Shown piece by piece: positions 1,827 to 48,400 of a stretch of 56,902 nucleotides of DNA; position 1 is the stretch's first letter; every line of letters begins with the position of its first letter. Both the position numbers and the translations under genes were made by a program. Location: IMG/VR virus record IMGVR_UViG_3300042350_003263, positions 1-56,902 of that record; one strand, given 5' to 3'. Source of the DNA: a virus. The notes beneath the pieces are model-generated. The model was not told the DNA's origin. It was given only the letters and a program-made list of their open reading frames with translations, and made no database searches.

Positions 1827-1918
1827 GGGAGTGTCAAATAAGGCTATGCTGGTGCTAACAGCGGACTGTAAATCCGTTCCTGAAGAGGCAAGTTGTTCGA
1901 TTCAACACACTCCCACCA
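1827..1918 (+). tRNA. tRNA-Tyr (GTA)
   Basis: Acceptor GGGAGTG/CACTCCC, anticodon stem GCGGA/TCCGT with loop CTGTAAA. A long class II variable arm is as expected for bacterial Tyr. CCA encoded. Confidence 0.93.
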
Positions 1919-2220: not shown

Positions 2221-2526
2221 ATGAACATCTCGATCGATTACGATGATACCTACACCAAGGATCCACTTCTATGGAACTGGTTTGCACAGGAAGCGTTGAA
2301 CCGTGGACATAAAGTCTACTGTGTATCTGCTCGTGGAACTCAGCACATGGATGATCCGAAGATGACGATCGGTCGAGTGATCGGTGCAGAGAATTGCTTT
2401 GGAACTGGTCTTCGTCCTAAGCGACACTTTATGCATCATGTTCACAAGATCGACATCGATGTATGGATCGACGATATGCCAGAGATGATCGTTGATCCTG
2501 AAATCGAAGGTTTGTATATGCCATAA
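2221..2526 (+). CDS. HAD-like phosphatase domain protein (101 aa)
   Basis: Start chosen at ATG 2221 because AAGGAG lies just upstream and the promoter overlaps the in-frame upstream ATG. The N-terminus 'MNISIDYDDTYTKDP' carries the HAD motif I pattern (D-x-D-x-T), 'CVSARG' fits motif II (S), and 'DVWIDDMPEM' fits the acidic motif IV. It is short and without a cap, like stand-alone HAD phosphatases common in large phages. The substrate is unknown; a nucleotide or nucleic-acid 3'-phosphate is possible given the second HAD protein at 20471. Confidence 0.8.
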   Translation: MNISIDYDDTYTKDPLLWNWFAQEALNRGHKVYCVSARGTQHMDDPKMTIGRVIGAENCFGTGLRPKRHFMHHVHKIDIDVWIDDMPEMIVDPEIEGLYMP

Positions 2527-2527
2527 T

Positions 2528-2600
2528 GCTTCTGCCGGCGGACCCGGTGGCGGGTCTACGAAGCCTGCTTACGAATGTTCAACTCATTCCAGGAGCGCCA
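2528..2600 (+). tRNA. tRNA-Arg (ACG), irregular D-arm
   Basis: Acceptor GCTTCTG/CAGGAGC, anticodon arm CGGGT-CTACGAA-GCCTG (wobble pairs), variable CTTAC, T-arm GAATG/CATTC with TTCAACT, discriminator G and CCA. The D-arm (GGCGGACCCGGTGG) does not fold normally, and an alternative hairpin GACCC/GGGTC competes. Confidence 0.65.
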
Positions 2601-2744
2601 ATAAAACGTTGTAGCGAAGGTCGACATTTGCTATGATGAGAATGCTGCATACGCCTTAGGACTACTCGGCGTATCGGGTAACACGGTCTGAGTCTTAGCT
2701 CGGATGCAGGGGTAAGAGTCCCAATTGGAGATGTCCTGAAATTT
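2601..2744 (+). other. Gene-free spacer with a structured segment
   Basis: No CDS or complete tRNA seen. A 7-bp hairpin ATACGCC/GGCGTAT (2649-2674) lies inside CTGCAT/ATGCAG (2645-2650 with 2704-2709), so the spacer RNA is probably folded. Further down, GGGG...TCCC resembles a T-stem but lacks the TTC loop. Confidence 0.4.
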
Positions 2745-2819
2745 GCTTCCATAGCTCAACGTAAGAGCGCCAGTCTTCGAAACTGAGGGTTGAAGGTTAG
2801 AGTCCTTCTGGGAGCACCA
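2745..2819 (+). tRNA. tRNA-Arg (TCG)
   Basis: Acceptor GCTTCCA/TGGGAGC, anticodon loop CTTCGAA, T-stem GAAGG/CCTTC, CCA encoded. The T-loop reads TTAGAGT, so the invariant C56 is replaced by A. Confidence 0.88.
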
Positions 2820-2826
2820 ATATAAT

Positions 2827-2901
2827 GCTGGATAAGGTGTAATGGTTGCATCCCTCACTGTGACTGAGGTGGACGTGGTTCGATCCCACTATCCAGTACC
2901 A
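2827..2901 (+). tRNA. tRNA-His (GTG)
   Basis: Acceptor GCTGGAT/ATCCAGT, anticodon stem CCTCA/TGAGG with loop CTGTGAC, T-loop TTCGATC, CCA encoded. Confidence 0.9.
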
Positions 2902-2906
2902 ATAAT

Positions 2907-2981
2907 GCGGAGGTAGCTCAGTGGTAGAGCTTCTCGTTGCCAACGAGATGGCCGTGGGTTCGAATCCCATTCTCCGCTCCA
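2907..2981 (+). tRNA. tRNA-Gly (GCC)
   Basis: Acceptor GCGGAGG/TCTCCGC, D-arm GCTCAGTGGTAGAGC, anticodon loop TTGCCAA, T-arm GTGGG/CCCAT, discriminator T and CCA. Confidence 0.94.
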
Positions 2982-2986
2982 AATAT

Positions 2987-3063
2987 GTCCTTGTAGACCA
3001 ATTGGTAGAGTCTCGTGGTTGAGGGCCACGAAGTTGGAGGTTCGAATCCTCTCAGGGACACCA
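2987..3063 (+). tRNA. tRNA-Leu (GAG), short variable loop
   Basis: Acceptor GTCCTTG/CAGGGAC, anticodon stem CGTGG/CCACG with loop TTGAGGG, T-arm GGAGG/CCTCT, CCA encoded. The variable region is only AAGTT (5 nt); bacterial tRNA-Leu normally has a long class II arm. Confidence 0.9.
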
Positions 3064-3070
3064 AATACGT

Positions 3071-3144
3071 TGCCCGTTCGTCTAACGGTAGGACGCTAGG
3101 CTCTGACCCTAGTAATCGCGGTTCGAATCCTCGACGGGCATCCA
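3071..3144 (+). tRNA. tRNA-Gln (CTG)
   Basis: Acceptor TGCCCGT/ACGGGCA, anticodon stem CTAGG/CCTAG with loop CTCTGAC, T-loop TTCGAAT, discriminator T and CCA. Confidence 0.92.
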
Positions 3145-3158
3145 AAAAAATTCATTTA

Positions 3159-3192
3159 GGGGATTTACAACCCAATCTGAATAGCTTATATT
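3159..3192 (+). promoter_or_regulatory. Phage promoter, TTTACA class, upstream of the Ro-like locus
   Basis: GGGGA then TTTACA (3164-3169), 17-nt spacer, TATATT (3187-3192). The transcript would start near 3199 and read through two structured RNAs (3216-3292, 3311-3397) into the Ro-like gene. Confidence 0.8.
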
Positions 3193-3215
3193 ACTACTAT
3201 CGAAACAATGAACAT

Positions 3216-3292
3216 AGGATCGTTACAGCATCTTAGAGCTCGTTAGAGCATTTGACTTGTAATCAAACGGAAAGCCGAAAGGCGCGATCCTG
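3216..3292 (+). ncRNA. Scaffold-family RNA, copy A, with a Thr(TGT)-like anticodon arm
   Basis: Closing helix AGGATCG/CGATCCT (3216-3222 with 3285-3291) followed by G. Just inside is TTACAGCA, the family motif. The insert has a D-arm-like GCTC/GAGC and an anticodon arm TTTGA-CTTGTAA-TCAAA (TGT). A GCC-GAAA-GGC GNRA hairpin sits where a T-arm would be, and there is no CCA. It looks like a tRNA mimic rather than a chargeable tRNA. Confidence 0.65.
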
Positions 3293-3310
3293 ATTAAACT
3301 ATGAAACCAT

Positions 3311-3397
3311 AGGTTGGTTTCAGCAACTAAACCCGGGAATGGTTCCCAATTTGTCTTGTAAACAAACTTAGCGGTTCGAATCCGTAAACCCAACCTG
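3311..3397 (+). ncRNA. Scaffold-family RNA, copy A2, with a Thr(TGT)-like tRNA body
   Basis: Closing helix AGGTTGG/CCAACCT (3311-3317 with 3390-3396) followed by G; inside is TTTCAGCAACTAAAC. The insert carries a D-arm-like GGGAATGGTTCCC, an anticodon arm TTTGT-CTTGTAA-ACAAA (TGT) and a T-loop TTCGAAT. Extra nucleotides separate the acceptor-like helix from both arms. It ends one nucleotide before the Shine-Dalgarno of the Ro-like gene, so folding or processing may affect translation. Confidence 0.65.
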
Positions 3398-3409
3398 AAA
3401 GGAAATATT

Positions 3410-4840
3410 ATGTCTTTTGTAAACGCAGTTAAAAATGCTAACTACTCTAAGCCCGCTCGTACCGCTAACGGTATGAAGGCTAATGCTACTTCCAAGTCCA
3501 AGGTGCTTGACTTGTTCGGCGTTATTGGTTCCGCTCGTGGTTCTGATATCTCCAAGCAGTTCGTTGCTTCTATGACTGAGAACCTTGATCTGACTGTCCG
3601 TATGCTGCTTTGGGCTCGTGACATTCGTGGAGGTGCTGGCGAACGTGCTACCTTCCGTAACTTGCTTGCTGCGCTTGAGTCTACCGACCCAACTCTTGCT
3701 GGTAAGCTGATGCACAAAGTTCCAGAGCTTGGCCGTTGGGATGACTTGTTCACTTACAAAGATCCTCTCAACCGTCGTAAGGCGTTTGCGTTCATTCGTG
3801 AAGCGCTAGCAAACCAGGACGGTCTCTGCGCGAAGTGGATGCCACGTAAAGGTCCTGTTGCTGTTGAACTGACTAAGTTCCTTGAACTTACTCCAAAACA
3901 GTATCGTAAGCTGATCGTAGGCTTGACCAACGTTGTTGAGTCTAAGATGTGTGCTAAGGAGTGGGAAGCTATCAACTTCTCTCACGTTCCTTCCGTGGCA
4001 TCCGCTCGCTACCAGAAGGCTTTCGGCCGTAACGCAAAGGAAGCATACTCTGCTTACATTGCCGAACTGAAAAAGCCTGTTGCTGAACGTGCAGATCCTA
4101 AGGTCAAGATCAACGCCGGTGCAGTTTATCCATATGACGTAGTTAAGTCTGTTGTCAAGGGTAATGCAGCAGTTGCTGATGAGCAGTGGAAGGCTTTGCC
4201 TAACTACATCGGCGATGCGAAGATCATGCCTATGGTCGACGTATCTGGTTCTATGGGTAGCCTCGGTTACTCTTACGGAAGTCAGCTTTCTCCTATCGAC
4301 ATTGCAGTCTCTCTGGGTCTGTACTGTGCTGATAAGAACACCGGCGACTTCAAGGACCTGTTCTTGACCTTCTCTGGTAAGCCTAAGATGGAACACCTGA
4401 AAGGTACTCTGTCTCAGAAGATGACTCAGATGAGCCGCGCCAACTGGGAAATGAACACCAATCTACACGCTGCTTTTGACGAGATTCTTAAGATCGCTGT
4501 TAAGGGTAACGTTGCAGAAAGTGACATGCCTCAGATGCTGTTGATTCTATCTGACATGCAGTTTGACTCTTGCACTAAGTACGATGACTCTGCTATGCAG
4601 ATGATCAAGCGTAAGTACAACGATGCAGGCTACAATGTGCCGAAGATTGTCTTCTGGAACGTTTCCATGTATGGTAAAGCAGATGGCAACACCCCAGTTC
4701 GTTTCGACGAACGTGGTACTGCTCATATCTCTGGGTTCAGCCCAGCTATCATGAAGAGCGTTCTTGCGAACGACCTTGAGGACTACACCCCATACAATGT
4801 TATGGTAAAGGCTCTTAACGTCGAGCGTTATAACTACTAA
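3410..4840 (+). CDS. Ro60-type TROVE/VWA RNA-binding protein (DUF2828-like)
   Basis: 476 aa, start fixed by GAAAGGA 7 nt upstream. The N-terminal ~265 residues are helical, resembling the TROVE/DUF2828 HEAT-like ring ('MLLWARDIRGGAGER', 'LGRWDDL'). Next is a von Willebrand A domain with MIDAS motif D277-x-S279-x-S281 and a second acidic site at D382 (SDMQFD). Known relatives (Ro60/Rsr) are ring proteins that bind Y RNAs and misfolded RNAs and take part in RNA quality control. Here the gene sits inside a tRNA cluster, directly flanked by three RNAs with a common closing helix (3216, 3311, 4874). Function as a Ro-like RNA chaperone is inferred; the family call is firmer than the partner call. 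Confidence 0.85.
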   Translation: MSFVNAVKNANYSKPARTANGMKANATSKSKVLDLFGVIGSARGSDISKQFVASMTENLDLTVRMLLWARDIRGGAGERATFRNLLAALESTDPTLAGKLMHKVPELGRWDDLFTYKDPLNRRKAFAFIREALANQDGLCAKWMPRKGPVAVELTKFLELTPKQYRKLIVGLTNVVESKMCAKEWEAINFSHVPSVASARYQKAFGRNAKEAYSAYIAELKKPVAERADPKVKINAGAVYPYDVVKSVVKGNAAVADEQWKALPNYIGDAKIMPMVDVSGSMGSLGYSYGSQLSPIDIAVSLGLYCADKNTGDFKDLFLTFSGKPKMEHLKGTLSQKMTQMSRANWEMNTNLHAAFDEILKIAVKGNVAESDMPQMLLILSDMQFDSCTKYDDSAMQMIKRKYNDAGYNVPKIVFWNVSMYGKADGNTPVRFDERGTAHISGFSPAIMKSVLANDLEDYTPYNVMVKALNVERYNY

Positions 4841-4843
4841 TTG

Positions 4844-4863
4844 GTTAGGCCTTCGGGCCTAAC
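4844..4863 (+). terminator. Strong hairpin with TTCG loop after the Ro-like gene
   Basis: GTTAGGCC-TTCG-GGCCTAAC, an 8-bp GC-rich stem 3 nt after the stop codon. The tail is TTCCTC, a poor U-tract, so it may act as a partial terminator or as a 3'-end stabiliser ahead of the next structured RNA. Confidence 0.55.
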
Positions 4864-4873
4864 TTCCTCAATT

Positions 4874-4972
4874 AGGATCGTTGCCGCAACAAAGTTGATA
4901 GTGCAATGGTAGCACATTTTCCTTCTAAGAAAAAGTCGGGGGTTCGATTCCCCCTCAAAGAAAGCGATCCTG
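4874..4972 (+). ncRNA. Scaffold-family RNA, copy B, with a tRNA-Arg(TCT)-like body
   Basis: Closing helix AGGATCG/CGATCCT (4874-4880 with 4965-4971) followed by G; inside is TTGCCGCAACAAAG. The insert has a D-stem GTGC/GCAC, an anticodon arm TTTTC-CTTCTAA-GAAAA (TCT) and a T-arm GGGGG/CCCCC with TTCGATT. Its own acceptor pairs for only four base pairs (TTGA/TCAA) and there is no CCA. It may be a tRNA-Arg in an extended precursor, or a mimic. Confidence 0.65.
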
Positions 4973-4977
4973 TTTAG

Positions 4978-4985
4978 TATAAATA
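4978..4985 (+). promoter_or_regulatory. T4-type late promoter
   Basis: Exact TATAAATA, the T4 late -10 consensus, 26 nt before the thermonuclease start. It implies late expression with the gp33-dependent machinery (a gp33 gene is at 24780). Confidence 0.7.
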
Positions 4986-5010
4986 ACCTAACATTAGTTA
5001 GGAGAATACT

Positions 5011-5454
5011 ATGAAAAAATTATTACTATCGATTGCACTTATGTTTGTAGCATCTGGTGCAATTGCCGAAGTGAAGAAGCCGAAAGGTGTCATTCACGAT
5101 TTAAAGATTATTCGAATTATTGATGGTGATACTGTTGAGATTGAAGCGCCATTCTTAATTGAACCTTTGCCCAAGAAACTTTCTGTTCGCGTTTGGGGCG
5201 TAGATACACCTGAAAAAGGTGGACGTGCCAGCTGCGAAAAAGAAGCAGAAATGGGTGCAGCTGCAAGCAAGTTCACAAAGGATCTTGTTGCTAACGCTAA
5301 GACTACCCAGATCAATCTCTATGAATGGGATAAGTTTGGTGGTCGTGTACTCGGTGACGTAATCATCGATGGTAATAGCTTAACTGCTATGTTGATCGAA
5401 AAAGGTTACGCTAGAGAATACTATGGCGATGCAAAAAAATCATGGTGTGAATGA
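5011..5454 (+). CDS. Secreted thermonuclease (staphylococcal nuclease fold)
   Basis: 147 aa. Residues 1-19 form a signal peptide (basic start, hydrophobic core, AIA-E cleavage pattern), so the enzyme should act in the periplasm or outside. The SNase core shows 'RIIDGDTVEIEAP', 'RVWGVDTPEKGG' (catalytic R and E) and 'GGRVLGDV' (second catalytic R), so all three active-site residues of the family are present. Such enzymes cut DNA and RNA with calcium. A 6-bp hairpin CCTAAC/GTTAGG (4987-5002) overlaps the Shine-Dalgarno, so translation may be gated. It lies after a late promoter, which suits a role in late degradation of competing or extracellular DNA. Confidence 0.9.
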   Translation: MKKLLLSIALMFVASGAIAEVKKPKGVIHDLKIIRIIDGDTVEIEAPFLIEPLPKKLSVRVWGVDTPEKGGRASCEKEAEMGAAASKFTKDLVANAKTTQINLYEWDKFGGRVLGDVIIDGNSLTAMLIEKGYAREYYGDAKKSWCE

Positions 5455-5468
5455 AAAAAGTTCATTTA

Positions 5469-5502
5469 GGGGGTTTACAATCATAGATACATATCTTATA
5501 TT
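5469..5502 (+). promoter_or_regulatory. Phage promoter, G5-TTTACA class, for an RNA-only operon
   Basis: GGGGG (5469-5473), TTTACA (5474-5479), 17-nt spacer, TATATT (5497-5502). It is followed within 25 nt by a boxA-like sequence, and then about 650 nt of tRNAs and structured RNA before the first small CDS. Confidence 0.85.
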
Positions 5503-5523
5503 ACTCCTATAAGAACAAACAAA

Positions 5524-5540
5524 CGCTCTTTGACAATTTA
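5524..5540 (+). promoter_or_regulatory. boxA-like rRNA-leader antitermination sequence
   Basis: CGCTCTTTGACAATTTA differs at two positions from the E. coli rrn boxA leader stretch as I recall it (TGCTCTTTAACAATTTA). In rRNA operons this RNA site binds NusB/S10 and prevents Rho-dependent termination of untranslated RNA. Here it begins the transcript of a tRNA/ncRNA operon. Confidence 0.6.
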
Positions 5541-5563
5541 GAAGAAACAGAATGAAATAATTT

Positions 5564-5638
5564 CTGTTTTCACATGCATATACGGCGAAAGGAACTCTGC
5601 AGAGTGGCCCGGTAACTGATGTATGCAGTTGAAAACAG
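5564..5638 (+). ncRNA. Structured RNA (75 nt) closed by a 9-bp helix
   Basis: CTGTTTTCA (5564-5572) pairs perfectly with TGAAAACAG (5630-5638); inside, TGCATA pairs with TATGCA (5575-5580 with 5622-5627), then a CTCTGCAGAG palindrome. No CCA, no T-loop. Unknown function, 5' of tRNA-Met. Confidence 0.5.
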
Positions 5639-5643
5639 AGTTT

Positions 5644-5721
5644 TGCGGGGTAGACTGGAGGTGGTTCCAGCACGGTCTCATAAGCCGATTACGGAGGTTC
5701 GATTCCTCCCCACCGCAACCA
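5644..5721 (+). tRNA. tRNA-Met (CAT), initiator-like 3' end
   Basis: Acceptor TGCGGGG with CACCGCA, anticodon loop CTCATAA, T-arm GGAGG/CCTCC with TTCGATT, and 3' end CCGCAACCA, which resembles bacterial initiator tRNA ends. T1-A72 is however paired, unlike the unpaired 1-72 of true initiators. Confidence 0.85.
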
Positions 5722-5723
5722 AG

Positions 5724-5811
5724 TTTAGACTGTAGAAGTAATCACCTCTTGTGAAGGTGTCCCTGATCCGTCATCGCCGGCAGGTCAAAGCTGCAAACAG
5801 CCCAGTCTAAA
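5724..5811 (+). ncRNA. tRNA-like RNA (88 nt) with a TGT anticodon-like loop and no CCA
   Basis: Terminal 9-bp helix TTTAGACTG/CAGTCTAAA; hairpin CACCT-CTTGTGA-AGGTG (5743-5759) looks like a Thr(TGT) anticodon arm; a GCAG-GTCAAAG-CTGC hairpin sits where a T-arm would be but lacks the TTC motif. No D-arm and no CCA. Confidence 0.5.
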
Positions 5812-5824
5812 ACAAAAGCCAACG

Positions 5825-5875
5825 TCCTAGACATTGCGAAACCTCGGGCTTAATACGAGTTATAGATAGCTAGGA
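5825..5875 (+). ncRNA. Short structured RNA segment
   Basis: TCCTAG (5825-5830) pairs with CTAGGA (5870-5875) and encloses a CTCG/CGAG hairpin with loop GGCTTAATA. No CDS in 5812-5909. It could be a leader or processing element of tRNA-Ser. Confidence 0.35.
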
Positions 5876-5909
5876 GACCAGCCATGAGGGTGCAGATTGG
5901 CAAAGATAC

Positions 5910-6001
5910 GGGAGGTTAACTCAGCTGGGCTGGGACTCGCCTTGAAAGCGATGGGTACGGTTAGTAGCCGTATGGAGTTCGATTCTACCATCCTCCCGCC
6001 A
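5910..6001 (+). tRNA. tRNA-Ser (TGA)
   Basis: Acceptor GGGAGG/CCTCCC, anticodon loop CTTGAAA, long class II variable arm (TACGG/CCGTA), T-loop TTCGATT, discriminator G and CCA. Confidence 0.9.
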
Positions 6002-6007
6002 TAATTT

Positions 6008-6070
6008 AGGATCGGTTCAGCAAACCAAAACGCTAACATATTGAAGTCTTAGCGGACCAAAACGATCCTG
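6008..6070 (+). ncRNA. Scaffold-family RNA, copy C (63 nt, hairpin insert)
   Basis: Closing helix AGGATCG/CGATCCT followed by G; inside GTTCAGCAAACCAAAA on the 5' side and GACCAAAA on the 3' side, then an inner stem CGCTAA/TTAGCG with a 12-nt loop. Nearly identical to copy D at 9950, but the loop sequence differs while both helices are conserved. Confidence 0.7.
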
Positions 6071-6078
6071 TTTAATTT

Positions 6079-6154
6079 GGGCTCTTAGCTCAGCTGGGAG
6101 AGCGCCTGCCTTGCAAGCAGGAGGTCAGGAGTTCGATCCTCCTAGGGTCCACCA
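6079..6154 (+). tRNA. tRNA-Ala (TGC)
   Basis: Acceptor GGGCTCT/AGGGTCC, D-arm GCTCAGCTGGGAGAGC, anticodon stem CCTGC/GCAGG with loop CTTGCAA, CCA encoded. Confidence 0.94.
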
Positions 6155-6172
6155 ATACAACGGAGAAAGCAA

Positions 6173-6936: not shown

Positions 6937-7125
6937 AGAATGTTTACAGCAACAAAACAAAACTATCGGTTCGATTCCGATACTCCCCACCATGGATACA
7001 CTGCGACCACTCGTTATATCCACTAGAGTGCACGCTAGACGCTAAAGGATGAACTCAGTGTATCTTTGATGGGGAGTATGGCAAGGTGCCGCTAAGAGCA
7101 ATCTTAGCTTTCCCCAAACATTCTG
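6937..7125 (+). ncRNA. Scaffold-family RNA, copy E, enclosing a circularly permuted tRNA-like
   Basis: Outer helix AGAATGTTT/AAACATTCT (6937-6945 with 7116-7124, 9 bp) followed by G; inside is ACAGCAACAAAAC. The 3' tRNA half comes first: T-arm ATCGG/CCGAT with TTCGATT, then ACTCCCC, A, CCA (6982-6992). A spacer closed by GATACACTG/CAGTGTATC (6995-7003 with 7056-7064) follows. Then the 5' half: GGGGAGT (7071-7077), complementary to ACTCCCC over 7 bp, a GGCA/TGCC arm and a GCTAAGA-GCAA-TCTTAGC hairpin. The outer helix takes the place of the anticodon stem, so the tRNA body is permuted at the anticodon. Confidence 0.65.
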
Positions 7126-7470: not shown

Positions 7471-7519
7471 ATAAAGATCTGAAACAGGATCTAAAAGAAC
7501 AATAAAATTGAAGGTGATT

Positions 7520-8992
7520 ATGGACGGTATTATTTTTTCTGGATTTACTTTTTCTGCGACAAGAAGGGGAAATATCCAATCTCCACAATTAGGTCCTTAT
7601 AGAATGAGAACCTATCTAGAAGAAAATGGTTATACTTGCGACATTATAGATTGGTTTGACTTTTGGACAGAAGAAGAAATATTACAACTAATAAAAAACC
7701 GTTACCACGAGAATCTAAAATTTATTGGGTTTAGTGTTACATTCCAAAAAATTCAGAATATCAGTACAGATTTACTGAAAAAAATTAAAACGTCTTTTCC
7801 TAGTTTGAAAATAGTCTTTGGAAGTCAAGAACCTAATGAAACTCTTTGTGGGGAACATCCGCAAAAATCAAGATATATTGATATCGTTTTCTATGGTCAT
7901 TCTGAAGTAGCATTTCTAGAATATATTAAACACCTTGATGGTAAACCAAGTAAGCACAAAGCAGAGAAATTTTCTACTGGCGTTGATTATGTAATATCTC
8001 CAAATGTGTTACCATATACAGATACATCTAACCTTACTACTATCTGGAAACCTGATGATCCTTTAAAATATTTTAAAGGTGGTAGTGTAGAGATATCTCG
8101 GGGTTGTATGTTTAAATGTAAATTCTGTTATTCCCCTCTTATTGGAAGGAAAAGAGCAGATTATACAAGATCTGTAGAAAATTTAGCAGATGAGTTAAAA
8201 AGGAACTACGATTTATTCGGTATCAACCATTATGTTTTTTCAGATGACACACTGAATGAGAGTACTGAGAAACTACTTAATATAAAAAAAGCTATTGAGC
8301 TATCAAGAGTGGATATTACTTTCACTGCATATATAAGATACGAAATCTTAAATACTCATTTCGATCAAGTAAAGATTATGTCTGATATGGGATGGATAGG
8401 TGGAATACTTGGTCTTGAAACGTTTAATCCTGAGTCAAGAAAAGCTATTGGCAAAGGTCTTACTACAGAAAAGATTTTAGATCTTCTTTATAGGGTAAAA
8501 CAGTTTAATAAGGATCTGCATTTATCTTCAGGTTTTATCGTAGGTTTACCTGGTGAAACAGAACAAACAACTACTGAATACTTTCAGGAATTTCTTAAGC
8601 TGAATAAGGATCATGAATATCTAGATTCTTTTTATTGGACACCTCTTTATATCTTAGAACCATATAAGTATCTTAACAGTATCTTTACAAAAGAAGCTAG
8701 TTCTTATGGATATAGTGTTATACCTGGTGCTGGTAAATGGACTAACAATAAATATGAAATAAAATCATGGGATGAAGCTTATCAAATATCTAATCGTTTG
8801 AACAATATGTGTAGGGATAACTTAGGAACCTCTGTTCAAATTTCAGAAGTTTTAAGTTTAGGTGTAGATAGAAATAAATTCAGACATATAAGATTTGGCG
8901 AAGAGATGAGAGAGCTCGTCAAATATAAAAAAGAAAAGATATGGAAATCTTATAGAGAAGAGAAATTAAATTATAAGATTTCCCGGGTGTAG
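7520..8992 (+). CDS. B12-binding-like/radical SAM protein (490 aa)
   Basis: Start at ATG 7520, 5 nt after GAAGG; a TTG at 7508 is a weaker alternative. The N-terminal ~150 residues look like the Rossmann-type cobalamin-binding domain ('QLGPYRMRTYLEENGY', 'IGFSVTFQ'). The radical SAM core has the cluster motif C196-x3-C200-x2-C203 ('RGCMFKCKFCYSP') and later 'GLETFNPESRKAIGKGLT' and 'SGFIVGLPGET', typical of class B methylthiotransferase/BchE-like enzymes. No TRAM domain is seen, so it is not MiaB. Clearly more AT-rich than the surroundings. The last codons overlap tRNA-Pro. Substrate unknown: tRNA modification or small-molecule chemistry. Confidence 0.88.
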   Translation: MDGIIFSGFTFSATRRGNIQSPQLGPYRMRTYLEENGYTCDIIDWFDFWTEEEILQLIKNRYHENLKFIGFSVTFQKIQNISTDLLKKIKTSFPSLKIVFGSQEPNETLCGEHPQKSRYIDIVFYGHSEVAFLEYIKHLDGKPSKHKAEKFSTGVDYVISPNVLPYTDTSNLTTIWKPDDPLKYFKGGSVEISRGCMFKCKFCYSPLIGRKRADYTRSVENLADELKRNYDLFGINHYVFSDDTLNESTEKLLNIKKAIELSRVDITFTAYIRYEILNTHFDQVKIMSDMGWIGGILGLETFNPESRKAIGKGLTTEKILDLLYRVKQFNKDLHLSSGFIVGLPGETEQTTTEYFQEFLKLNKDHEYLDSFYWTPLYILEPYKYLNSIFTKEASSYGYSVIPGAGKWTNNKYEIKSWDEAYQISNRLNNMCRDNLGTSVQISEVLSLGVDRNKFRHIRFGEEMRELVKYKKEKIWKSYREEKLNYKISRV

Positions 8993-9949: not shown

Positions 9950-10014
9950 AGGATCGGTTCAGCAAACAAAAACGCTAAATCGTATTGGATGTCTTAGCGG
10001 ACAAAACGATCCTG
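9950..10014 (+). ncRNA. Scaffold-family RNA, copy D (65 nt, hairpin insert)
   Basis: Closing helix AGGATCG/CGATCCT followed by G; inside GTTCAGCAAACAAAAA, inner stem CGCTAA/TTAGCG, and GACAAAA on the 3' side. Same fold as copy C at 6008 with a different 15-nt apical loop. Confidence 0.7.
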
Positions 10015-10309: not shown

Positions 10310-10384
10310 GTCCCTAGAGCATGATGGTTATGCACGCGCCTCTAAAACGCTGAAATGCAGGTTCAATTCCTGTTAGGGACACCA
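10310..10384 (+). tRNA. tRNA with CTA anticodon (possible amber suppressor)
   Basis: Acceptor GTCCCTA/TAGGGAC, D-arm GCAT/ATGC, T-arm GCAGG/CCTGT and CCA are sound. The anticodon loop CTCTAAA has U33 and anticodon CTA (reads UAG). Only the central three pairs of the anticodon stem (GCG/CGC) form; both end pairs are mismatched. If the loop were read as 9 nt the anticodon is ambiguous (TCT or CTA). Confidence 0.65.
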
Positions 10385-11075: not shown

Positions 11076-11162
11076 TGGATGGATACTGCAACCAATTTGT
11101 AGGGGTAATAACCTACTGTTCAAGCGGTTAGATAGTATCATCGAAATCCACAGACCATCCAG
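11076..11162 (+). ncRNA. Scaffold-family RNA, copy G
   Basis: TGGATGG (11076-11082) pairs with CCATCCA (11155-11161), followed by G; just inside is ATACTGCAACCAATTT, matching the family motif. The insert has a GTAGG/CCTAC hairpin (11099-11116). A competing helix ATACTAT/ATAGTAT (11068-11074 with 11132-11138) suggests two alternative folds. Confidence 0.55.
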
Positions 11163-25001: not shown

Positions 25002-25666
25002 TGAAAAAGTTCGTAGTCACAGGAACCCCTAGAAGTGGTACTACCTTTCTATGTGATTGTATAGCTAAACTTGATAATGTTTATATGAATGAGTCTAATC
25101 ACTATGAGCCATTCATATATGGTAGCAACATCTTAGATGAAGCTAAATATCTCTACAATCTAGAAAAAAACTATCCGAACAAGATCGTGGGATTTAAAGC
25201 ATTCCTTGGGGATTCTTTTTTCTTGCAAGATCATATGAAATCCTACGATCCTATTGTTATTATAAGACGGGATGTGAGTAAGGTTTTTCTGAGTCAATTG
25301 ATCTTAGGGAAAAAGGGAGCTGATAAAAATTTCAGTAGTAAAAATAGAAAAGGTATTGAATCTGTAGAATTCAATCGCAGATCACTTCAGTTCAATGCTA
25401 AAACTCTTTTGAAATGGTACTACTATGGGGAATTGATTCCTGCAAAGGTTAAACTTTATTTCGAAGATATCTTAGAGGGAAAGACCTATCCGGAGCTTGA
25501 TCAATATTTCGGAAATAAAATTGATTTGAATACGAATTACCAAGAGGCAGACCTTAGTGTCTATCACTCTGACTATGCCCCACTAATTAAATTCCTGAGA
25601 GATACTGCAATTTCTCTAGGACCGGAAAATTTTCCTGATTATATAAGGGAAAATCTGCATATATAG
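25001..25666 (+). CDS. Sulfotransferase-family protein (221 aa)
   Basis: ATG 25001 overlaps the gp33 stop (TGATG). The start 'FVVTGTPRSGTTFLCDCIA' is the 5'-phosphosulfate loop of PAPS sulfotransferases (G8-TPRSGTT15), and 'IVIIRRDVSKVFLSQLI' fits the 3'-phosphate-binding strand R..S. Full-length small enzyme of the Sulfotransfer family. More AT-rich than its neighbours, suggesting acquisition. The acceptor cannot be predicted: host surface sugars, a lipid or phage structures are possible. Confidence 0.85.
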   Translation: MKKFVVTGTPRSGTTFLCDCIAKLDNVYMNESNHYEPFIYGSNILDEAKYLYNLEKNYPNKIVGFKAFLGDSFFLQDHMKSYDPIVIIRRDVSKVFLSQLILGKKGADKNFSSKNRKGIESVEFNRRSLQFNAKTLLKWYYYGELIPAKVKLYFEDILEGKTYPELDQYFGNKIDLNTNYQEADLSVYHSDYAPLIKFLRDTAISLGPENFPDYIRENLHI

Positions 25667-25732: not shown

Positions 25733-26647
25733 ATGTCTTTTGCAAATCTCAAGCGCAGCCGCAACTCTATCGACAAGCTCGTTCAAGCAGCTCAGTCCGC
25801 AGGCGGTGGCGAAAAATCCTCCTACAAAGATGATCGTCTCTGGAAGCCAACTGTCGATAAGATGGGTAATGGCTATGCGGTCATTCGTTTCCTTCCTGCA
25901 GCTGAAGGTCAAGATCTACCTTGGACTCGTTACTGGGATCACGGCTTCAAAGGCCCAACCGGTAAGTGGTACATCGAACGTTCTCTGACGACTCTCGGTC
26001 AAGAAGATCCTGTTGGTAAGCTCAACAGCAAACTCTGGAATATGTCTGATGACGATAAGTCAGAGACTCGTAAGCAAGCACGTGACCAGAAGCGTCGACT
26101 GCACTATGTTGCTAACGTTCTGGTTGTCTCAGATCCTGCTAACCCAGACAACGAAGGTAAAGTCTTCTTGTACGAGTTTGGTAAGAAGATCTTTGATAAG
26201 GTTATGGACGCCATGCAGCCTCAGTACGCTGATGAAACTCCTATGAACCCATTCGACTTCTGGGCTGGTGCTAACTTTAAGATCAAGATCCGTAAAGTCG
26301 ATGGTTGGGTCAACTATGATAAGTCAGAGTTTGATTCCCCTAGCGAACTCTTCGATGGTGATGAAACTAAGCTTGAAGGCACCTACAACTCCCTTCACGA
26401 TCTGGGCGAATATACCGATCCGAAGAACTATAAGAGCTACGCAGAGCTTGAGCGTAAGATGAATGAGGTGCTTGGCACTGATAAGGTTCTTACACCTACT
26501 CAAGAGGTTCAGCTTGGTAATCAATCATCTTCACGTACTATGCGTGAAGCTCCTCCACAGAACATCGAAGAGATGGTTTCCGAAGAGGATGAAGATGATA
26601 GCCAAGAGGATGTTACGAGTTACTTTGCTCGTCTCGCAAACGGTTAA
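25733..26647 (+). CDS. 32: gp32-like single-stranded DNA binding protein (304 aa)
   Basis: AAGGAAC before the ATG. N-terminal self-association region 'MSFANLKRSRNSIDKLVQA' (the T4 'LAST' type basic start), OB-fold core with 'YAVIRFLPAAEGQDLPW', 'HGFKGPTGKWYIERSLT' and 'VANVLVVSDPANPDNEGKVF' closely like T4 gp32, then an acidic tail ('EDEDDSQEDVTSYFARLANG'). There is no cysteine in the whole protein, so the T4 zinc site is absent, as in marine relatives. Coats ssDNA in replication and recombination. It converges with the tape-measure gene, stops overlapping by 4 nt. Confidence 0.95.
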   Translation: MSFANLKRSRNSIDKLVQAAQSAGGGEKSSYKDDRLWKPTVDKMGNGYAVIRFLPAAEGQDLPWTRYWDHGFKGPTGKWYIERSLTTLGQEDPVGKLNSKLWNMSDDDKSETRKQARDQKRRLHYVANVLVVSDPANPDNEGKVFLYEFGKKIFDKVMDAMQPQYADETPMNPFDFWAGANFKIKIRKVDGWVNYDKSEFDSPSELFDGDETKLEGTYNSLHDLGEYTDPKNYKSYAELERKMNEVLGTDKVLTPTQEVQLGNQSSSRTMREAPPQNIEEMVSEEDEDDSQEDVTSYFARLANG

Positions 26648-28455
26648 GGTAGAGCCTCGATATACTGAACATCCATTGAGCTTAGGCCGTCGCCTGCACC
26701 AATTTGATTGTTCTGTACAGTAGTGCTACCAGCATTATAGGTTGATCCGAATACTACATTATTAGAGGCGGCTCCGGCCGCCTTCATATTTGCTACTTCT
26801 TCCTCGAGTTGTTTCATCTCTGATGATTTTGGTGGTGGTGTATAAGGGGTTACCCCACTCTGAAGATCCGCTCCGCTAGATGCGAATCTTCCACGACCAG
26901 CATATCCTGCAGCTCGCGCACCCGCGTAAGATTTCGTTCTAGTGATATTATCTGCTTTGAATTGATCATGTAACACAACTGCAGCTTCTTCAAGCTGCTT
27001 ACCGGTCATATTGGCGACATCTTTCAGACCTAATTCATCAATAACCCGAGGTTCCAGTTGTTTTAAGTTATTATGAAGTAGTTTTATATCTTCAATCTTA
27101 CTTGGGCCACCTTCACGCATCATCAAAATCATATCATTATAGGTTTTTGCTCCAAAGCCAGTACGGGTCCCGTCGGCTAAGTCAGAAGGCATTAATGCAA
27201 GTTGGGCTGCTAGAAGTGACCCAGATCCTAATACTCTTGCTGTAGTCCCAGCTGCTCTGGCGACGCTAGCGCCTGTAGCTGTGGAAGATTTGCTAGCAAT
27301 CGATGCTGTAACACGAGCTGCTTCTTCAGCCTGGCCGATTGGATCTAGTAAATTTAATCCTCTAAGACCGGTGTCTGCACCAACTCTCCCCATATCTCCT
27401 GCACTAATACCAGCAGGTTTTTTAGTTGGTATATTTTTTAGGGCATCTTCAACAGAAACAAATTTACCAGATGCATCTTTTAGTTGAGCCCCAGTCTTGT
27501 TGTTAACAACGGTGTATCCCTTAGCCTCAAGTTCTTTTAAAACATCAGCAGAGATTTCACTAATTTTTGTTTTAGGTTTCTTAACAGTAGATTCGATTGG
27601 GGCTGCTGATTTAGTTTCCGATTCATTTATAGTATAAGCAGCAACCCCTCTCATTTCAGCTAAGGCTTTAGCTTGAACTTTTTTGTCCTGTAAATTTTTA
27701 GTTGCCTTTGCTTCCATCTCTATTTTCTTAAGATCAGCTTCTCTTTGTTTAGCTTCGAATCTCTTTACTTCTGCATTTGTAGCTGCATTGGCCTTTGCTA
27801 TTTTTTCTTTTTCGGCTGCTTCTGCTACACGTATTTTGTCTTGAGCCTCTTGAACCCTCCCCTGGCGGTTCATAGCTTTAGCTTCTTTTTCTGCTAATTT
27901 TTGTCTCTTATTGGCTTCAGCAGATTCTGATCTTAGTCTTTCTTCTTGTCTTTTTAGACGTTCAGCTTCTGCACGTTCCACTAATCTTTGATCTTTTGAT
28001 TTTCTACGGAGTTCTTCTGCCTCTGCTCTTTGAATACCTCTTTGAGTTTTTACTCTATCATCAAATACATTTTTTAATGCTTTTGCAGATTCAGATAAAC
28101 CAGTTAAAGCTACCGCCAAACCACCAGCAACCAGGCCTCTTAATGCTGCAAAAGCCGCTGCGATTAATGCAAAATCCTTTAACGAATCTAAAACATTTTT
28201 TGCTTCTTTTTTAGAAGTTTCGGCTAATCCGCTAGCTAATGTATCAGGTTTTTCCTTTGCAAACCCTTTTAAAAGCTTATTTCTTTCACGCTCGGCTTCT
28301 AGTTCATCTCCTCTACGATTTTTTATATCCTGAAGGAAGGCCTTCAGATTGTTATCAATCCTACCCAGAGATTCATTACCAGTTTTTTGACCTTCGAGAA
28401 TTTTTTTATCATTCTCTTGGATCAATTCGCCGATTTCTTTTAACGTGATAGTCAT
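26644..28455 (-). CDS. Coiled-coil tape-measure/baseplate hub protein candidate (603 aa)
   Basis: Layout: N-terminal helices (1-85), a hydrophobic alpha-helical stretch about 92-120 ('FALIAAAFAALRGLVAGG'), a long charged coiled coil about 130-275 rich in A/E/K/R, a mixed domain, and a C-terminus 'GSTYNAGSTTVQNNQIGAGD' of tape-measure style. Its position directly after the gp26-like chaperone and its -1 extension is the usual tape-measure position; T4 gp29, the tape-measure equivalent, has a similar length. Start ATG 28453-28455 lies next to the extension's stop. Confidence 0.7.
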   Translation of the reverse strand: MTITLKEIGELIQENDKKILEGQKTGNESLGRIDNNLKAFLQDIKNRRGDELEAERERNKLLKGFAKEKPDTLASGLAETSKKEAKNVLDSLKDFALIAAAFAALRGLVAGGLAVALTGLSESAKALKNVFDDRVKTQRGIQRAEAEELRRKSKDQRLVERAEAERLKRQEERLRSESAEANKRQKLAEKEAKAMNRQGRVQEAQDKIRVAEAAEKEKIAKANAATNAEVKRFEAKQREADLKKIEMEAKATKNLQDKKVQAKALAEMRGVAAYTINESETKSAAPIESTVKKPKTKISEISADVLKELEAKGYTVVNNKTGAQLKDASGKFVSVEDALKNIPTKKPAGISAGDMGRVGADTGLRGLNLLDPIGQAEEAARVTASIASKSSTATGASVARAAGTTARVLGSGSLLAAQLALMPSDLADGTRTGFGAKTYNDMILMMREGGPSKIEDIKLLHNNLKQLEPRVIDELGLKDVANMTGKQLEEAAVVLHDQFKADNITRTKSYAGARAAGYAGRGRFASSGADLQSGVTPYTPPPKSSEMKQLEEEVANMKAAGAASNNVVFGSTYNAGSTTVQNNQIGAGDGLSSMDVQYIEALP

Positions 28456-45451: not shown

Positions 45452-48400
45452 ATGGTAAGTCAAGTAATTAAAGACAGTTTCCTAAACATCTATAAGGATG
45501 ATTATAGGGACAGTGACAACTATTATAAAATCCTATTTAATAATGGTAGAGCGCTACAACAGCGAGAGCTTAACCAGATGCAGACTATCATTAATAAGGA
45601 TATAAAATCCTTTGCTGGATATATGCTTGATCCCGGTGCTGCTACAGAAGGCGGTGCAATTGCTGTACTAAAAGTTCCATTTATTAGATTAAATCTAGTT
45701 TCCAACCCACTACCTGCTAATCCTACATCAATTGAAAATGTCGTGTTTGAAGAAACCTCTACCGGTATTCAATTTAGAGTAGAGAAAGTTACCGCTGCTA
45801 CTGGTATCATATATGTGACTTATATTGACCAAGCCGGAGAAGTAGTTACTGATACTGCAATATCAATCACAAATACAAATAGTACTTTAGTGGCTCAAGA
45901 TGGGTCTGGGGTTACTCTTTCTACCTCTGCAACAAATACGCTAGTTTCTCCTATGACAGGGGAAGGTCTTCTGTGTATTCAGAATCCAGGTAGATTCTAC
46001 GTTGATGAGCATTTCATCTATAGTCCAAGACAAATTATTATTCTTTCCGCTACAAGCTCGAATGCTGATGTCGTAGTAGGTCATAAAGTTTCCGAATCAA
46101 TCGTAACAGTAAACGATAATGAAGACCTATATGACAACTCTGGTGCAAACTTAAACATCTCAGCGCCGGGTGCAGATAGATATAGAATTACTCTAGAACT
46201 TACTACTCAAGATTTAGTAGATTCATCTGATTATTTCATCCCGCAAATTAAAGTTGCTGATGGTAAGGTCGTTAGTGATAAAAATGCTGGGGCTAGCGGA
46301 TTAAAAGCTACAGAAGATTTCCTTGCTATTCGTTTAAGAGAAATCCATGGTAACTTTACCCAACAGAATTTTATTATTACTTTCGAAGATGATCCAAATA
46401 ACGCTGACGCTTTTAAAGTAATTATTAACCCGGGTAAGGCTTATGTTGGCGGTCACAGAGTTCATTTAAGAGAGCGTCTGGTCCTTACAGAAGCTCGTCC
46501 TAGAACTACCCAGGTTATTAATAATGAAACAACAACTGTAACTTACGGTAACTACGTTGTCGTAAGCGGTATGCAAAGTCTATTCGATGTCGGATCTTTC
46601 GAGAAAGTAAATATTAAACAAAGCTCTACTACCATTGGTACAGCTTATGTTAGAGCTATTGAAGAATTTGGCAGCAATTATAAAATTTACCTATTTGAAG
46701 TAAAAATGAATGCTGGTAAAAACTTTTCATCAGCTACCTCTATTCAAGATTCTACGAGTAATGCTGCAACTATCGTCCTAGAAAATGGTGTCGCTAGACT
46801 TTACGGTCAAGAAGATAGAAATCTGCTCTTTGGATTAAATCGTATTCGCCCAAAAAGTTTCTCAGATATCGTCTTCACTACTCAGAAGCATTTTGCCGCT
46901 CAAACCGCTGCAAGTAACCAGATTACCGTTTTAGCCGGTACAGGTAAAGCATTTGATGACACTGGTTCTTGGATAATTGTTAATGAAACTACCGACACAG
47001 TAGTAACTCCTACGATCACACTTTCTGGTGGAGGTAGTACTGCAGTTATTGGTGGTTTAACTAACGGGGAAAGTTATGCAGTACATGCCTATGTTCAACA
47101 TTCCGGTACTTCTGGTTCAGTAAGAACTAAAACATTAACAAATAGAACAGATTCGGGATTATCTGTATCTGGTGGTGTAGTAACATTATCTCAGGTTGAT
47201 GTGTACTCTATTACTTCTGTTATCGATAATACAACTAGTGCTGACATTACAAACAATTTCAAATTTTATAATGGCCAGACAGACAACTATTATGACTATG
47301 GTACACTAACCTTAAAAGGTGGTGCACCTACGCCAGCAAGCACAGTCACCGTAACTTATAGGCATTTCAACTGGGGTACTTCAGGAGACTTCTTCGCAGC
47401 ATCAAGCTACACTGGAACTATTGACTATGAGGATATTCCAGCCTTTAGACTGAATAATGGTAATACTGTAGAGTTAAGAGAAGTATTAGACTTCAGACCG
47501 AAAAGATCAGGTTCAACATTCAGCGGATTTGCTCTTCCTAGAAATGGTGATCTAATTACTATGGACGTAGAATACTACCTCCCAGTCAGAGGTAGAATAT
47601 TCATAACACGTGATGAAGTATTCGGGGTTTATTTCGGCGATCCAGCCTTTGATCCTAAGTTGAGAGATTTAGGAAATGACCTTGATACTATGGAAATCGC
47701 GAACTTCTATGCTAATCCTTATATGCTTAATACAGGGGATTTAGTTCTTAACTATACCCAGAATAAGCGATATACTATGAAAGAAATCTCTAACATTGAT
47801 GAAAGATTAAAAGAACTAAAAGAATTCACTACTCTTTCGTTATTAGAGCTCGGAGCAGTAAATAAGAATGTTCTTGATGCTGAAGGATTCAATAGACTAA
47901 AAACAGGTATTACCGCTGACAACTTTAAAGACCACTTCCAGACCGATACGGCTGATGAAGAACATAGAGCTGCTATAGACTTCATCGAAGGCGTGGTTAG
48001 ACCACAAACAACACAGAATTCTATTGATCTGGTTTTTGATTCTGATCTATCTAGCGGTGTTGTAAAGGTAGGCGATATAATTATCCTTGATTATGATGAA
48101 GAGGTTTGGAAGAACCAATCTTCAGTTTCTAGATCTATCCCTTTAGATGATACTATCTTGAAAAAATATCAAGGTGCTATTACAATGTCCCCTGGTACTG
48201 ATAACTGGAAAGATACCAAAACTCTTCCCGATAAAGTGATTACCGGTAACCCAAGAATTGAGCCTAAGATAAATAACACCTTTAACTATAACTCAGTTAG
48301 CTGGCAGGGTATTAAAGCAGGTGATCTAGCAAATGCACAAAATGGAACTGTAGTAGCTACCGGTACTTCAACCTCATCTACTACTTCAACCGGTGGCGTA

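What the first reader, a model, noticed from the sequence alone, without database searches (positions are those of the whole stretch)
3216..4972. Candidate phage Ro60/Y-RNA-like ribonucleoprotein locus
A TROVE/VWA (Ro60-type, DUF2828-like) protein gene with an intact MIDAS is flanked by three scaffold-family RNAs: two immediately upstream (3216, 3311) and one immediately downstream (4874). All three carry tRNA-like arms. Established knowledge: Ro60/Rsr proteins bind Y RNAs through a stem made by the RNA ends, and bacterial YrlA RNAs carry a tRNA-like module. Common stem plus tRNA mimic plus Ro protein in one transcript is the same logic. I do not see the published Y-RNA Ro-binding consensus, so this would be a divergent system. 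A possible job is tRNA quality control, or presenting decoy anticodon arms to host anticodon nucleases.
Basis: partly seen in the sequence, partly recalled or inferred. Interest (0 to 1): 0.93.

Follow-up and report, generated by a model that had tools for sequence, protein, structure and literature searches.

The report
Phage Ro60-like protein and partner RNAs
Many phages, and some bacterial genomes, pair a protein predicted to be shaped like the human Ro60 autoantigen with small RNAs that carry the same docking hairpin and often imitate transfer RNAs; the pairing is clear in the sequences, but its job is not yet known.

Summary
The gene at 3410-4840 encodes a DUF2828/DUF7788 protein that the Pfam TROVE model misses but that is predicted to have the whole Ro60 fold (Z 19.6 to Xenopus Ro60). 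RNAs A, B and C share a docking element: a 7-bp helix, NNN, CAGCAA (A and C vary by one base), a variable insert, the closing strand, then G. The window has six strict copies (A-F), all on the gene's strand, none opposite.

The element accompanies DUF2828 genes in phages from KVP40 to Felix O1, Listeria and Mycobacterium phages, and in contigs filed as bacterial genomes. Chosen blind to the helix, 95 of 109 upstream motifs have the exact closing strand, each followed by G; swapped controls give 3.4%. Rfam scans found no such family.

Inserts include anticodon-arm mimics and circularly permuted tRNAs, as in bacterial YrlA. The element also occurs inside out, as a hairpin within tRNAs of about 110-120 nt.

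Best reading: a Ro60/Y-RNA-like RNP family with its own protein-binding handle. Binding and function are unproven. The Ro60-Y RNA principle is known, and a Listeria phage paper already proposed phage Y RNAs; this handle I found in no paper searched.

The parts
3161..3193 (+). phage promoter-like site (TTTACA ... TTATATTA) ending 22 nt before element A; one of five near-identical sites in the window, all +
   Evidence: 4 + 1 exact matches, mean 0.00 in shuffles
3216..3292 (+). element A: helix 3216-3222/3285-3291, core TTACAGCAT, insert with D-like hairpin, anticodon-like arm (loop CUUGUAA) and GNRA hairpin
   Evidence: (E 5e-4); same element upstream of the gene in relatives
3311..3397 (+). 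element B: helix 3311-3317/3390-3396, core TTTCAGCAA, insert with D-like hairpin 3335-3347, anticodon-like arm 3350-3366 (loop CUUGUAA), T arm 3371-3385; helix ends 13 nt before the start codon
   Evidence: E 2e-5; fold
3410..4840 (+). DUF2828/DUF7788 protein, 476 aa, predicted Ro60 fold (helical-repeat ring plus vWA domain with MIDAS)
4874..4972 (+). element C: helix 4874-4880/4965-4971, core TTGCCGCAA, insert with D arm 4901-4915, anticodon arm 4917-4933 (loop CUUCUAA), T arm 4938-4954; no proper acceptor stem
   Evidence: (tRNA model 55.4 bits, positions 4-67); not an R1 hit
6008..6070 (+). element D: helix 6008-6014/6063-6069, core GTTCAGCAA, short insert with one hairpin
   Evidence: (E 8e-9, but D is in the model's training set); close copies in other viral contigs
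6937..7125 (+). element E: helix 6937-6943/7118-7124, core TTACAGCAA, 165-nt insert with T arm, CCCCACCA strand, long hairpin, matching GGGGAG strand and D-like hairpin (permuted-tRNA order, by eye)
   Evidence: not an R1 hit; no YrlA match
9950..10014 (+). element F: helix 9950-9956/10007-10013, core GTTCAGCAA, short insert with one hairpin
   Evidence: (E 7e-8, but F is in the training set)
11076..11162 (+). candidate element G: helix TGGATGG 11076-11082/CCATCCA 11155-11161, variant core ATACTGCAA
   Evidence: letters only; not found by R1, and its minimum-energy fold does not form the helix: weak

Best explanation
This is a Ro60-like ribonucleoprotein locus. The DUF2828 protein (Ro60-fold ring plus vWA domain) most likely binds a dedicated RNA handle: a 7-bp helix closed by the RNA ends, the unpaired core NNNCAGCAA on its 5' side and a G(U) after its 3' strand. 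The handle presents whatever is inserted between its strands: anticodon-arm mimics, permuted tRNA modules like YrlA, or short hairpins. Copies just before the start codon probably also let the protein sense its own level (autoregulation). Copies elsewhere, and copies built as a hairpin into tRNA-shaped RNAs, would act in trans. Shown here: the element, its conservation and helix complementarity, its linkage to the gene, the predicted fold. Inferred: binding. Guessed: the job. I think a Y-RNA-like tether that brings tRNA-recognising enzymes (in bacteria, PNPase) to the ring for RNA surveillance during infection is the most likely job, about 0.4, with tRNA decoy next.
For: Linkage: strict element in -450..+45 of the gene in 26/26, 71/77 and 8/21 loci of three sets; shuffles hit in 9/520, 46/1540 and 15/420; reverse strand 0/26, 3/77, 0/21. 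Helix-blind test: 95 of 109 distinct motifs have the exact closing 7-mer, all 95 followed by G; swapped 7-mers 3.4%; reverse strand 0 of 14. Model R1 hits listed are all on the gene's strand: 32 of 32 (E<=0.5), 43 of 43 (E<=0.01), 108 of 108 (E<=1e-4). Whole records: 18 of 21 phages with the gene, 0 of 3 without it. RNA-side scan of viral contigs: 105 matches in 97 stretches; the unspecified base after CAGCA is A in 104 and the base after the helix G in 104; of 49 records with the RNA but no gene in the stretch held, 25 have the gene elsewhere, 21 of the 26 that are 40 kb or longer. Fold: Z 19.6, rmsd 4.0, 397 residues to Xenopus Ro60; 15.3 to the Ro60 of Thermus phage phiLo; 11.1 to Deinococcus Rsr. 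In 75 of 80 loci with a strict element, the nearest one ends 1-27 nt before the (script-guessed) start codon in 61 and reaches into or past it in 11. Permuted inserts: 34 of 73 T-arm inserts.
Against: No binding data. The Ro60 fold is a prediction (pLDDT 83.8), and the TROVE model misses the protein. L115 has no upstream element (nearest R1 hit 1.1 kb upstream). R1 finds nothing at E<=0.01 in 3 of 21 DUF2828 phages (B23, EFGrNG, ME3); B23 has weaker and inside-out copies and EFGrNG one helix-bearing copy by the first scan, ME3 none that I saw. Only 8 of 21 named phages have a strict copy upstream. Only 32 of 61 bacterial loci have R1 hits. Five of 26 long contigs carry the RNA without the gene (completeness unknown). 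Upstream position alone would also fit a cis-regulatory leader recognised by another factor. Elements that trained R1 were picked by the scanner, so its helix count is not independent; one search is. Of the 109 motifs, 14 have no exact closing strand.
Confidence: 0.8

Rival explanations
1. Decoy display: the RNP holds up anticodon arms without a functional acceptor so that host anticodon nucleases (or tRNA-binding defence proteins) act on or are trapped by the decoys instead of phage and host tRNAs.
For: Anticodon-like 7-nt loops occur in 174 of 434 distinct inserts against a mean of 23 (max 33) in 50 shuffles; at least 41 of the 174 are T loops, but the rest are led by CUUGUAA (29), CUUUUAA (19) and CUUCUAA (11). 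The window's A, B, C carry CUUGUAA, CUUGUAA, CUUCUAA. The gene sits among tRNA genes in the window, Ci1 and Felix O1. A similar inhibitor role was suggested for YrlA (PMC7790460, passage).
Against: Many inserts have no anticodon arm (D and F here). Anticodon identity drifts between close relatives (L003 has lost the loop of B). YrlA fragments were not seen when an anticodon nuclease was active.
Confidence: 0.3
2. The element is only a cis-acting translational operator: the protein, or another factor, binds the leader of its own mRNA.
For: Nearest element ends 1-27 nt before the start codon in 61 of 75 loci and reaches into or past it in 11; in KVP40 the closing strand of a 6-bp helix contains the start codon.
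Against: Many copies are away from the start codon: C, D, E, F in the window, groups 3-11 kb away (Pseudomonas), about 50 kb away (Ochrobactrum) and about 200 kb away (Erwinia), Felix O1 copies among tRNAs, and tRNA-embedded copies. Leaders do not need tRNA mimicry.
Confidence: 0.12
3. The RNAs are decaying tRNA genes or tRNA-array debris next to an unrelated vWA protein.
For: They lie in a tRNA array, and annotators call some of the long ones pseudo-tRNA.
Against: The handle, not the tRNA part, is what recurs with a matching helix; copies with no tRNA part (D, F) score best; linkage extends to Mycobacterium, Listeria and Campylobacter phages and to contigs filed as bacterial.
Confidence: 0.02

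Closest known systems
Bacterial Rsr and YrlA RNA (RYPER with PNPase); Rfam RF02553
   Same: Ro60-fold protein beside small RNAs; RNA ends pair into a basal stem; effector part is a circularly permuted tRNA (YrlA as a circular permutation: PMC11472068, abstract and passages; RYPER: PMC8394870, passages). LeBron element 2 scores 39.8 bits and a Mycolicibacterium one 28.3 against the YrlA model.
   Different: Both scores are below Rfam's 69-bit gathering score. The basal stem has NNNCAGCAA / G(U) where the Rfam YrlA consensus printed has aAUGCuugg / aAaAcUuG. The protein is DUF2828, not TROVE. Inserts are more varied, often several elements per locus.
Vertebrate Ro60 and Y RNAs
   Same: Predicted fold: Z 19.6, 397 residues, 14% identity to 1yvr; helix formed by RNA ends.
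   Different: Only weak sequence-level matches, in and around the vWA domain; the vertebrate Y RNA binding motif is recalled, not tested.
Ro60 of Thermus phage phiLo (PDB 9l5y; 9kop is titled Trove domain) and Ro-like proteins of other phages
   Same: Phage-borne Ro60-type proteins; phiLo Ro60 Z 15.3. LeBron gp53 is itself DUF2828-type and is toxic when overproduced in M. smegmatis (PMC13148394, passages). A TROVE protein in some jumbo phages is noted in PMC7824862 (passage) and a Ro60-related one in Vibrio phage pir03 in PMC7765460 (passages).
   Different: These sources describe no partner RNA in the text I saw; no RNA of phiLo was examined here.
Putative Y RNAs of Listeria phage CKA15 (PMC12282133)
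   Same: The authors link an Rsr-like protein (CKA15_055, also found in purified particles) with abundant non-coding RNAs less than 2 kb away and suggest Y RNAs (passages and section 8). cka15 is 100% identical to L041 over the stretch with our three elements.
   Different: No motif or structure in the passages I read. The one region whose coordinates I saw (26,236-26,727) does not contain our elements, which lie at 25,289-25,553; coordinates of their other two regions were not in the text I read.

Membership tests
Ro60/Rsr (TROVE) protein | match to Pfam TROVE (PF05731) | tested here: not met
   0 hits in the window (the model rings in 1 of 14 controls, Deinobacterium); absent from the 13 families listed for 18 aligned members, where PF25045 vWA_Ro60 appears in 2 with best E 0.016
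Ro60/Rsr (TROVE) protein | helical-repeat ring plus vWA fold over the whole chain | tested here: met
   on a predicted model only: pLDDT 83.8; Ro60/Rsr entries are the top 3 Foldseek hits and Ro60/TROVE entries the top 10 of VIA-align, Z 11.1-19.6
Ro60/Rsr (TROVE) protein | MIDAS motif in the vWA domain | tested here: met
   D277, S279, S281, T350 and D382 invariant in A1 and A2
Ro60/Rsr (TROVE) protein | binds Y RNA and misfolded RNA ends | not testable with these tools
   needs biochemistry
Y RNA / YrlA (RF02553) | Rfam YrlA gathering score (69 bits) | tested here: not met
   no hit in window; 39.8 and 28.3 bits in LeBron and M. sphagni; none at gathering in 17 and 20 related loci
Y RNA / YrlA (RF02553) | basal stem from the RNA ends, encoded beside a Ro-type gene | tested here: met
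   that the RNA ends lie at the stem is inferred, no transcript ends were measured
Y RNA / YrlA (RF02553) | YrlA consensus around the basal stem | tested here: not met
   Rfam consensus has aAUGCuugg where these RNAs have NNNCAGCAA (41-sequence alignment)
Y RNA / YrlA (RF02553) | circularly permuted tRNA effector module | tested here: met
   by motif, 34 of 73 T-arm inserts have a D motif after the T arm, 3 before it, the rest unclassified; in the window only E, by eye; B and C have the usual order
tRNA | complete cloverleaf with acceptor stem | tested here: not met
   A, B, C not called by ARAGORN; C matches the tRNA model at 4-67 only
any described Rfam RNA family | a model that describes the handle | tested here: not met
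   window at E<=1, 17 and 20 related loci at gathering: hits are tRNA, tmRNA, one ROOL and sub-threshold plastid models; C and the long inside-out copies are matched as tRNA, not by a handle family

The most novel reading that the evidence does not exclude
One RNA docking handle, read by a Ro60-like ring, has been moved between three layouts of the same molecule: handle open with tRNA parts inside in the usual order (B, C), handle open with a permuted, loop-closed tRNA inside (YrlA-like), and tRNA open with the handle folded into it, by eye in the anticodon stem (tRNAs of about 110-120 nt). These are circular permutations of one another, so phages would hold the living series that links tRNA to Y RNA, and would use it to park tRNA-shaped RNAs on a protein ring as bait or tether against host tRNA-cutting defences.
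Probability: 0.35. Interest if true: 0.95.

Novelty: new variant of a known kind. Interest (0 to 1): 0.87.

Why it matters
Ro60 and Y RNAs have been known for decades without a settled general function. Here is a separate family with the Ro60 fold, matched in 681 of 50,697 phage records, whose partner RNAs can be read from sequence in well-known phages (KVP40, Felix O1, LeBron), so the question can be tested with simple phage genetics. tRNAs with a built-in handle would explain some annotated pseudo-tRNAs and would connect tRNA to Y RNA by circular permutation.

Tried and rejected
Considered and dropped: tRNA debris (contradicted); chance helices (swapped and shuffled controls); membership in Rfam families. 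Of the six loci 'missing' an upstream element in the set, five have on reading a variant (CCGCA core, or a shifted or 6-bp helix): L052, L064, L068, L081, L102; L115 has none. I first took the 26,236-26,727 RNA of Listeria phage CKA15 as expression evidence for the elements; one search showed it does not contain them. TROVE loci were not searched for the CAGCAA handle.

Biases to know. The sequence sets overlap: at least L050, L063, L069, L071 are the same contigs as loci, and several loci are near-identical (e.g. L101, L121, L126). Dropped before counts: 1 of 27 (L027) and 3 of 80 loci with under 300 nt upstream; L045, L039 and L269 from the model alignment because they misaligned; inserts over 150 nt. 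Six of the 32 inside-out hits are 74-82 nt or 140 nt and more and look false; 26 are 109-120 nt, some near-duplicates. The first test of long tRNAs (12 of 15) used nine loci that I had chosen after seeing such hits, and its 18 normal tRNAs were hand-picked (0 of 18). I therefore repeated it on every third bacterial locus (20 of 61): 4 of 7 long tRNAs have the inside-out hairpin by the scan and 6 of 7 contain CAGCA, against 1 of 30 shorter ones; in the loci, chosen for open elements, 4 of 5 long ones. Three control phages are few. T-arm and D-arm search motifs are recalled. No fold family is said to be absent on the strength.

Literature: 10 searches in the open-licence PMC set showed me no description of this handle or of DUF2828 partner RNAs; DUF2828 itself listed 4 papers, all on plants. 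The key Y RNA papers (Chen 2014, Wang 2018, Sim and Wolin 2018, Sim 2020) are not held and were not read; PMC12282133 says Y RNAs were identified in mycobacteriophages by Chen 2014, so Y RNAs in some phages are already known.
Full report
What is there. The window is a 56.9-kb virus record with a tRNA array at one end (25 genes). Comparing its first 25 kb with named phages gave only short matches in tRNA regions. The gene at 3410-4840 encodes 476 aa with DUF7788 and DUF2828 domains and matches phrog_850, 'RNA-binding protein'. It has relatives in 681 phage records, all below 60% identity.

The RNA element. A strict scan of the window (7 pairs, at most one G-U, both conserved Gs) finds six such elements on the + strand among 89 cores (A-F) and none on the - strand among 156. 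Four of the six score with the covariance model R1 at E 8e-9 to 5e-4; C and E, with inserts of 75 and 165 nt, do not. D and F were in the model's training set, A and B were not. A fifth R1 hit at 46661-46717 (E 0.044) is probably chance.

Linkage to the gene. In 26 of 26 close viral relatives (one search set) and 71 of 77 further ones (one search set, chosen by protein only) a strict element lies between 450 nt upstream and 45 nt inside the gene, compared with 1.7% and 3.0% of dinucleotide shuffles and 3 of 103 reverse strands; in 21 named phages it is there in 8, with 3.6% of shuffles and 0 of 21 reverse strands. Of the 6 misses in the set, 5 have a visible variant and one (L115) has none. 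In named phages without an upstream copy, copies lie elsewhere: three downstream in LeBron, four among tRNAs in Felix O1, beyond the gene in Ci1 and S13, three downstream in Staphylococcus phage S-CoN_Ph6, and groups 3 to about 200 kb away in Pseudomonas, Ochrobactrum and Erwinia phages. Over whole records R1 hits 18 of 21 phages with the gene and 0 of 3 without it (T4, lambda, SPO1); 7 of the 18 gave training sequences. All R1 hits listed in related loci are on the gene's strand: 32 of 32, 43 of 43 in 32 of 61 bacterial loci, 108 of 108; some of these are training sequences.

Is the helix real? The count on the 41-sequence alignment (7 pairs, 6 with changes on both sides) is biased because the scanner chose paired sequences. 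The independent test takes the primary motif AGN8C(A/C)GCAA alone: of 109 distinct instances around the gene start in the set, 95 have the exact reverse complement of the AGN5 7-mer within 230 nt, and all 95 are followed by G; with 7-mers swapped between instances 3.4% do; on the reverse strand 14 motifs, none closed. From the RNA side, a pattern for one helix over all viral contigs gave 97 stretches with 105 matches; the two positions left open are A and G in 104 of 105 each, and in each row where a DUF2828 gene lay in the stretch it was on the same strand. Of 49 records whose stretch lacked the gene, 25 have it elsewhere; among records of at least 40 kb 21 of 26.

The protein. With 38 window and viral-contig sequences AlphaFold2 gave pLDDT 83.8, pTM 0.81. 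The best Foldseek matches in the PDB are Xenopus Ro60, human Ro60 and Deinococcus Rsr; VIA-align gives Z 19.6, rmsd 4.0, 397 aligned residues to Xenopus Ro60, 15.3 to Thermus phage phiLo Ro60 and 11.1 to Rsr, with other vWA proteins from 10.6 down. By sequence four of the five listed PDB matches are TROVE/Ro60 entries, but weak (E 0.03-0.15); the fifth is a ribosomal protein. Pfam TROVE does not match. So: same predicted fold, different sequence family. One annotator had noted this for an Ochrobactrum phage (HHpred to 2NVO).

What the handle carries. Inserts differ widely. In the window, B and C carry three tRNA-like arms, A two by eye, D and F one hairpin, E a T arm, acceptor strands and a D-like hairpin in permuted order by eye. 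Over all loci held at the time, 434 distinct inserts of up to 150 nt were collected; 73 contain a T-arm motif; in 34 of these a D-arm motif follows the T arm, in 3 it precedes it, the rest were not classified. T arm, closed acceptor stem, D arm is the order of YrlA, a circular permutation of tRNA (PMC11472068, abstract and passages). LeBron element 2 (4483-4604 of L042) is covered by a match to the YrlA model with 39.8 bits, below the 69-bit threshold, and the Mycolicibacterium sphagni counterpart with 28.3; the match is in the tRNA-like part, while the basal stem differs. Anticodon-like loops are in 174 inserts, of which at least 41 are T loops, against a mean of 23 in shuffles.

The element turned inside out. 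Long tRNAs near the gene in several phages (annotated tRNA-Ser, tRNA-OTHER or pseudo) contain the same helix and core with the strands in reverse order and joined by a short loop, in phages typically nnnnnCU-GnnA-AGnnnnn-NNN-C(A/T)GCA. In the two tRNAs of L031 the insert lies, by eye, in the 5' strand of the anticodon stem. A search for this form within an acceptor-closed shell with a T arm gave 32 hits against 1 on reversed and complemented sequences; 26 of the 32 are 109-120 nt, including ones shortly before the gene in Lachnospiraceae, other Clostridia and Breznakiella contigs. In an every-third sample of the bacterial loci (20 of 61), 4 of 7 tRNA-model hits of at least 105 nt have it and 6 of 7 contain CAGCA, against 1 of 30 shorter hits; an earlier, less even-handed count was 12 of 15 against 0 of 18.

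Expression and regulation. A phage promoter-like site, one of five in the window, ends 22 nt before element A, so A, B and the gene probably share a transcript; not measured. In 75 of 80 loci a strict element was found; the nearest ends 1-27 nt before the script-guessed start codon in 61 and reaches into or past it in 11, and in KVP40 the closing strand of a 6-bp helix contains the start codon: autoregulation is plausible. In Listeria phage CKA15 the Rsr-like protein was found in purified particles and abundant RNAs arise nearby (PMC12282133, passages and section 8); the region is 100% identical to L041, but the one region whose coordinates I saw does not contain our elements. LeBron gp53 is toxic when overproduced (PMC13148394, passages).

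Verdict. It works like Ro60/Y RNA; it is not filed as TROVE/YrlA because tested defining features (TROVE model, YrlA score and basal-stem consensus) were not met. Function is open: tether for RNA surveillance (about 0.4), decoy (0.3), cis-regulation only (0.12).

Noticed in passing
window 142, 3161, 5471, 9087, 22304 (+): Five near-identical promoter-like sites GGnTTTACA-N-TTATATTA, all on the + strand, none expected by chance.
   Followed up: partly
window 10310-10384: ARAGORN calls a tRNA with anticodon CUA (labelled Pyl), i.e. a possible amber-suppressor tRNA.
   Followed up: no
window 1827-1914 and 5910-5997: tRNA-like RNAs matching the selenocysteine tRNA model below threshold (28.8 and 41.1 bits), not called by ARAGORN.
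   Followed up: no
window 2526-6155: Two pieces within this span are 86-88% identical to Rhodobacter phage RcXuper and Bacteriophage DSS3_MAL1 in regions with tRNAs; the end near 2526 lies outside any called tRNA and may be another conserved RNA.
   Followed up: no
window 7508-8992: Radical SAM protein with a weak B12-binding match inside the tRNA array; conceivably a tRNA-modifying enzyme.
   Followed up: no
L041 about 1480-1971: Position of the highly abundant transcript of Listeria phage CKA15 at 26,236-26,727 (PMC12282133); contains no element by the scan, so it is a different large RNA.
   Followed up: partly
L116 1044-1378: Match to alpha tmRNA (108 bits) and permuted tmRNA (93 bits) about 1.2 kb upstream of a DUF2828 gene in a viral contig.
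   Followed up: no
L249 1797-2391: ROOL RNA (287 bits) about 600 nt upstream of a DUF2828 gene in a contig filed as Clostridia.
   Followed up: no
L243 2399-2521, L250 2017-2135, L036 966-1079, L258 2563-2673, L270 4452-4582: Further tRNA hits of 111-131 nt whose inserts fail the inside-out scan; four of the five contain the C(A/T)GCA core.
   Followed up: partly
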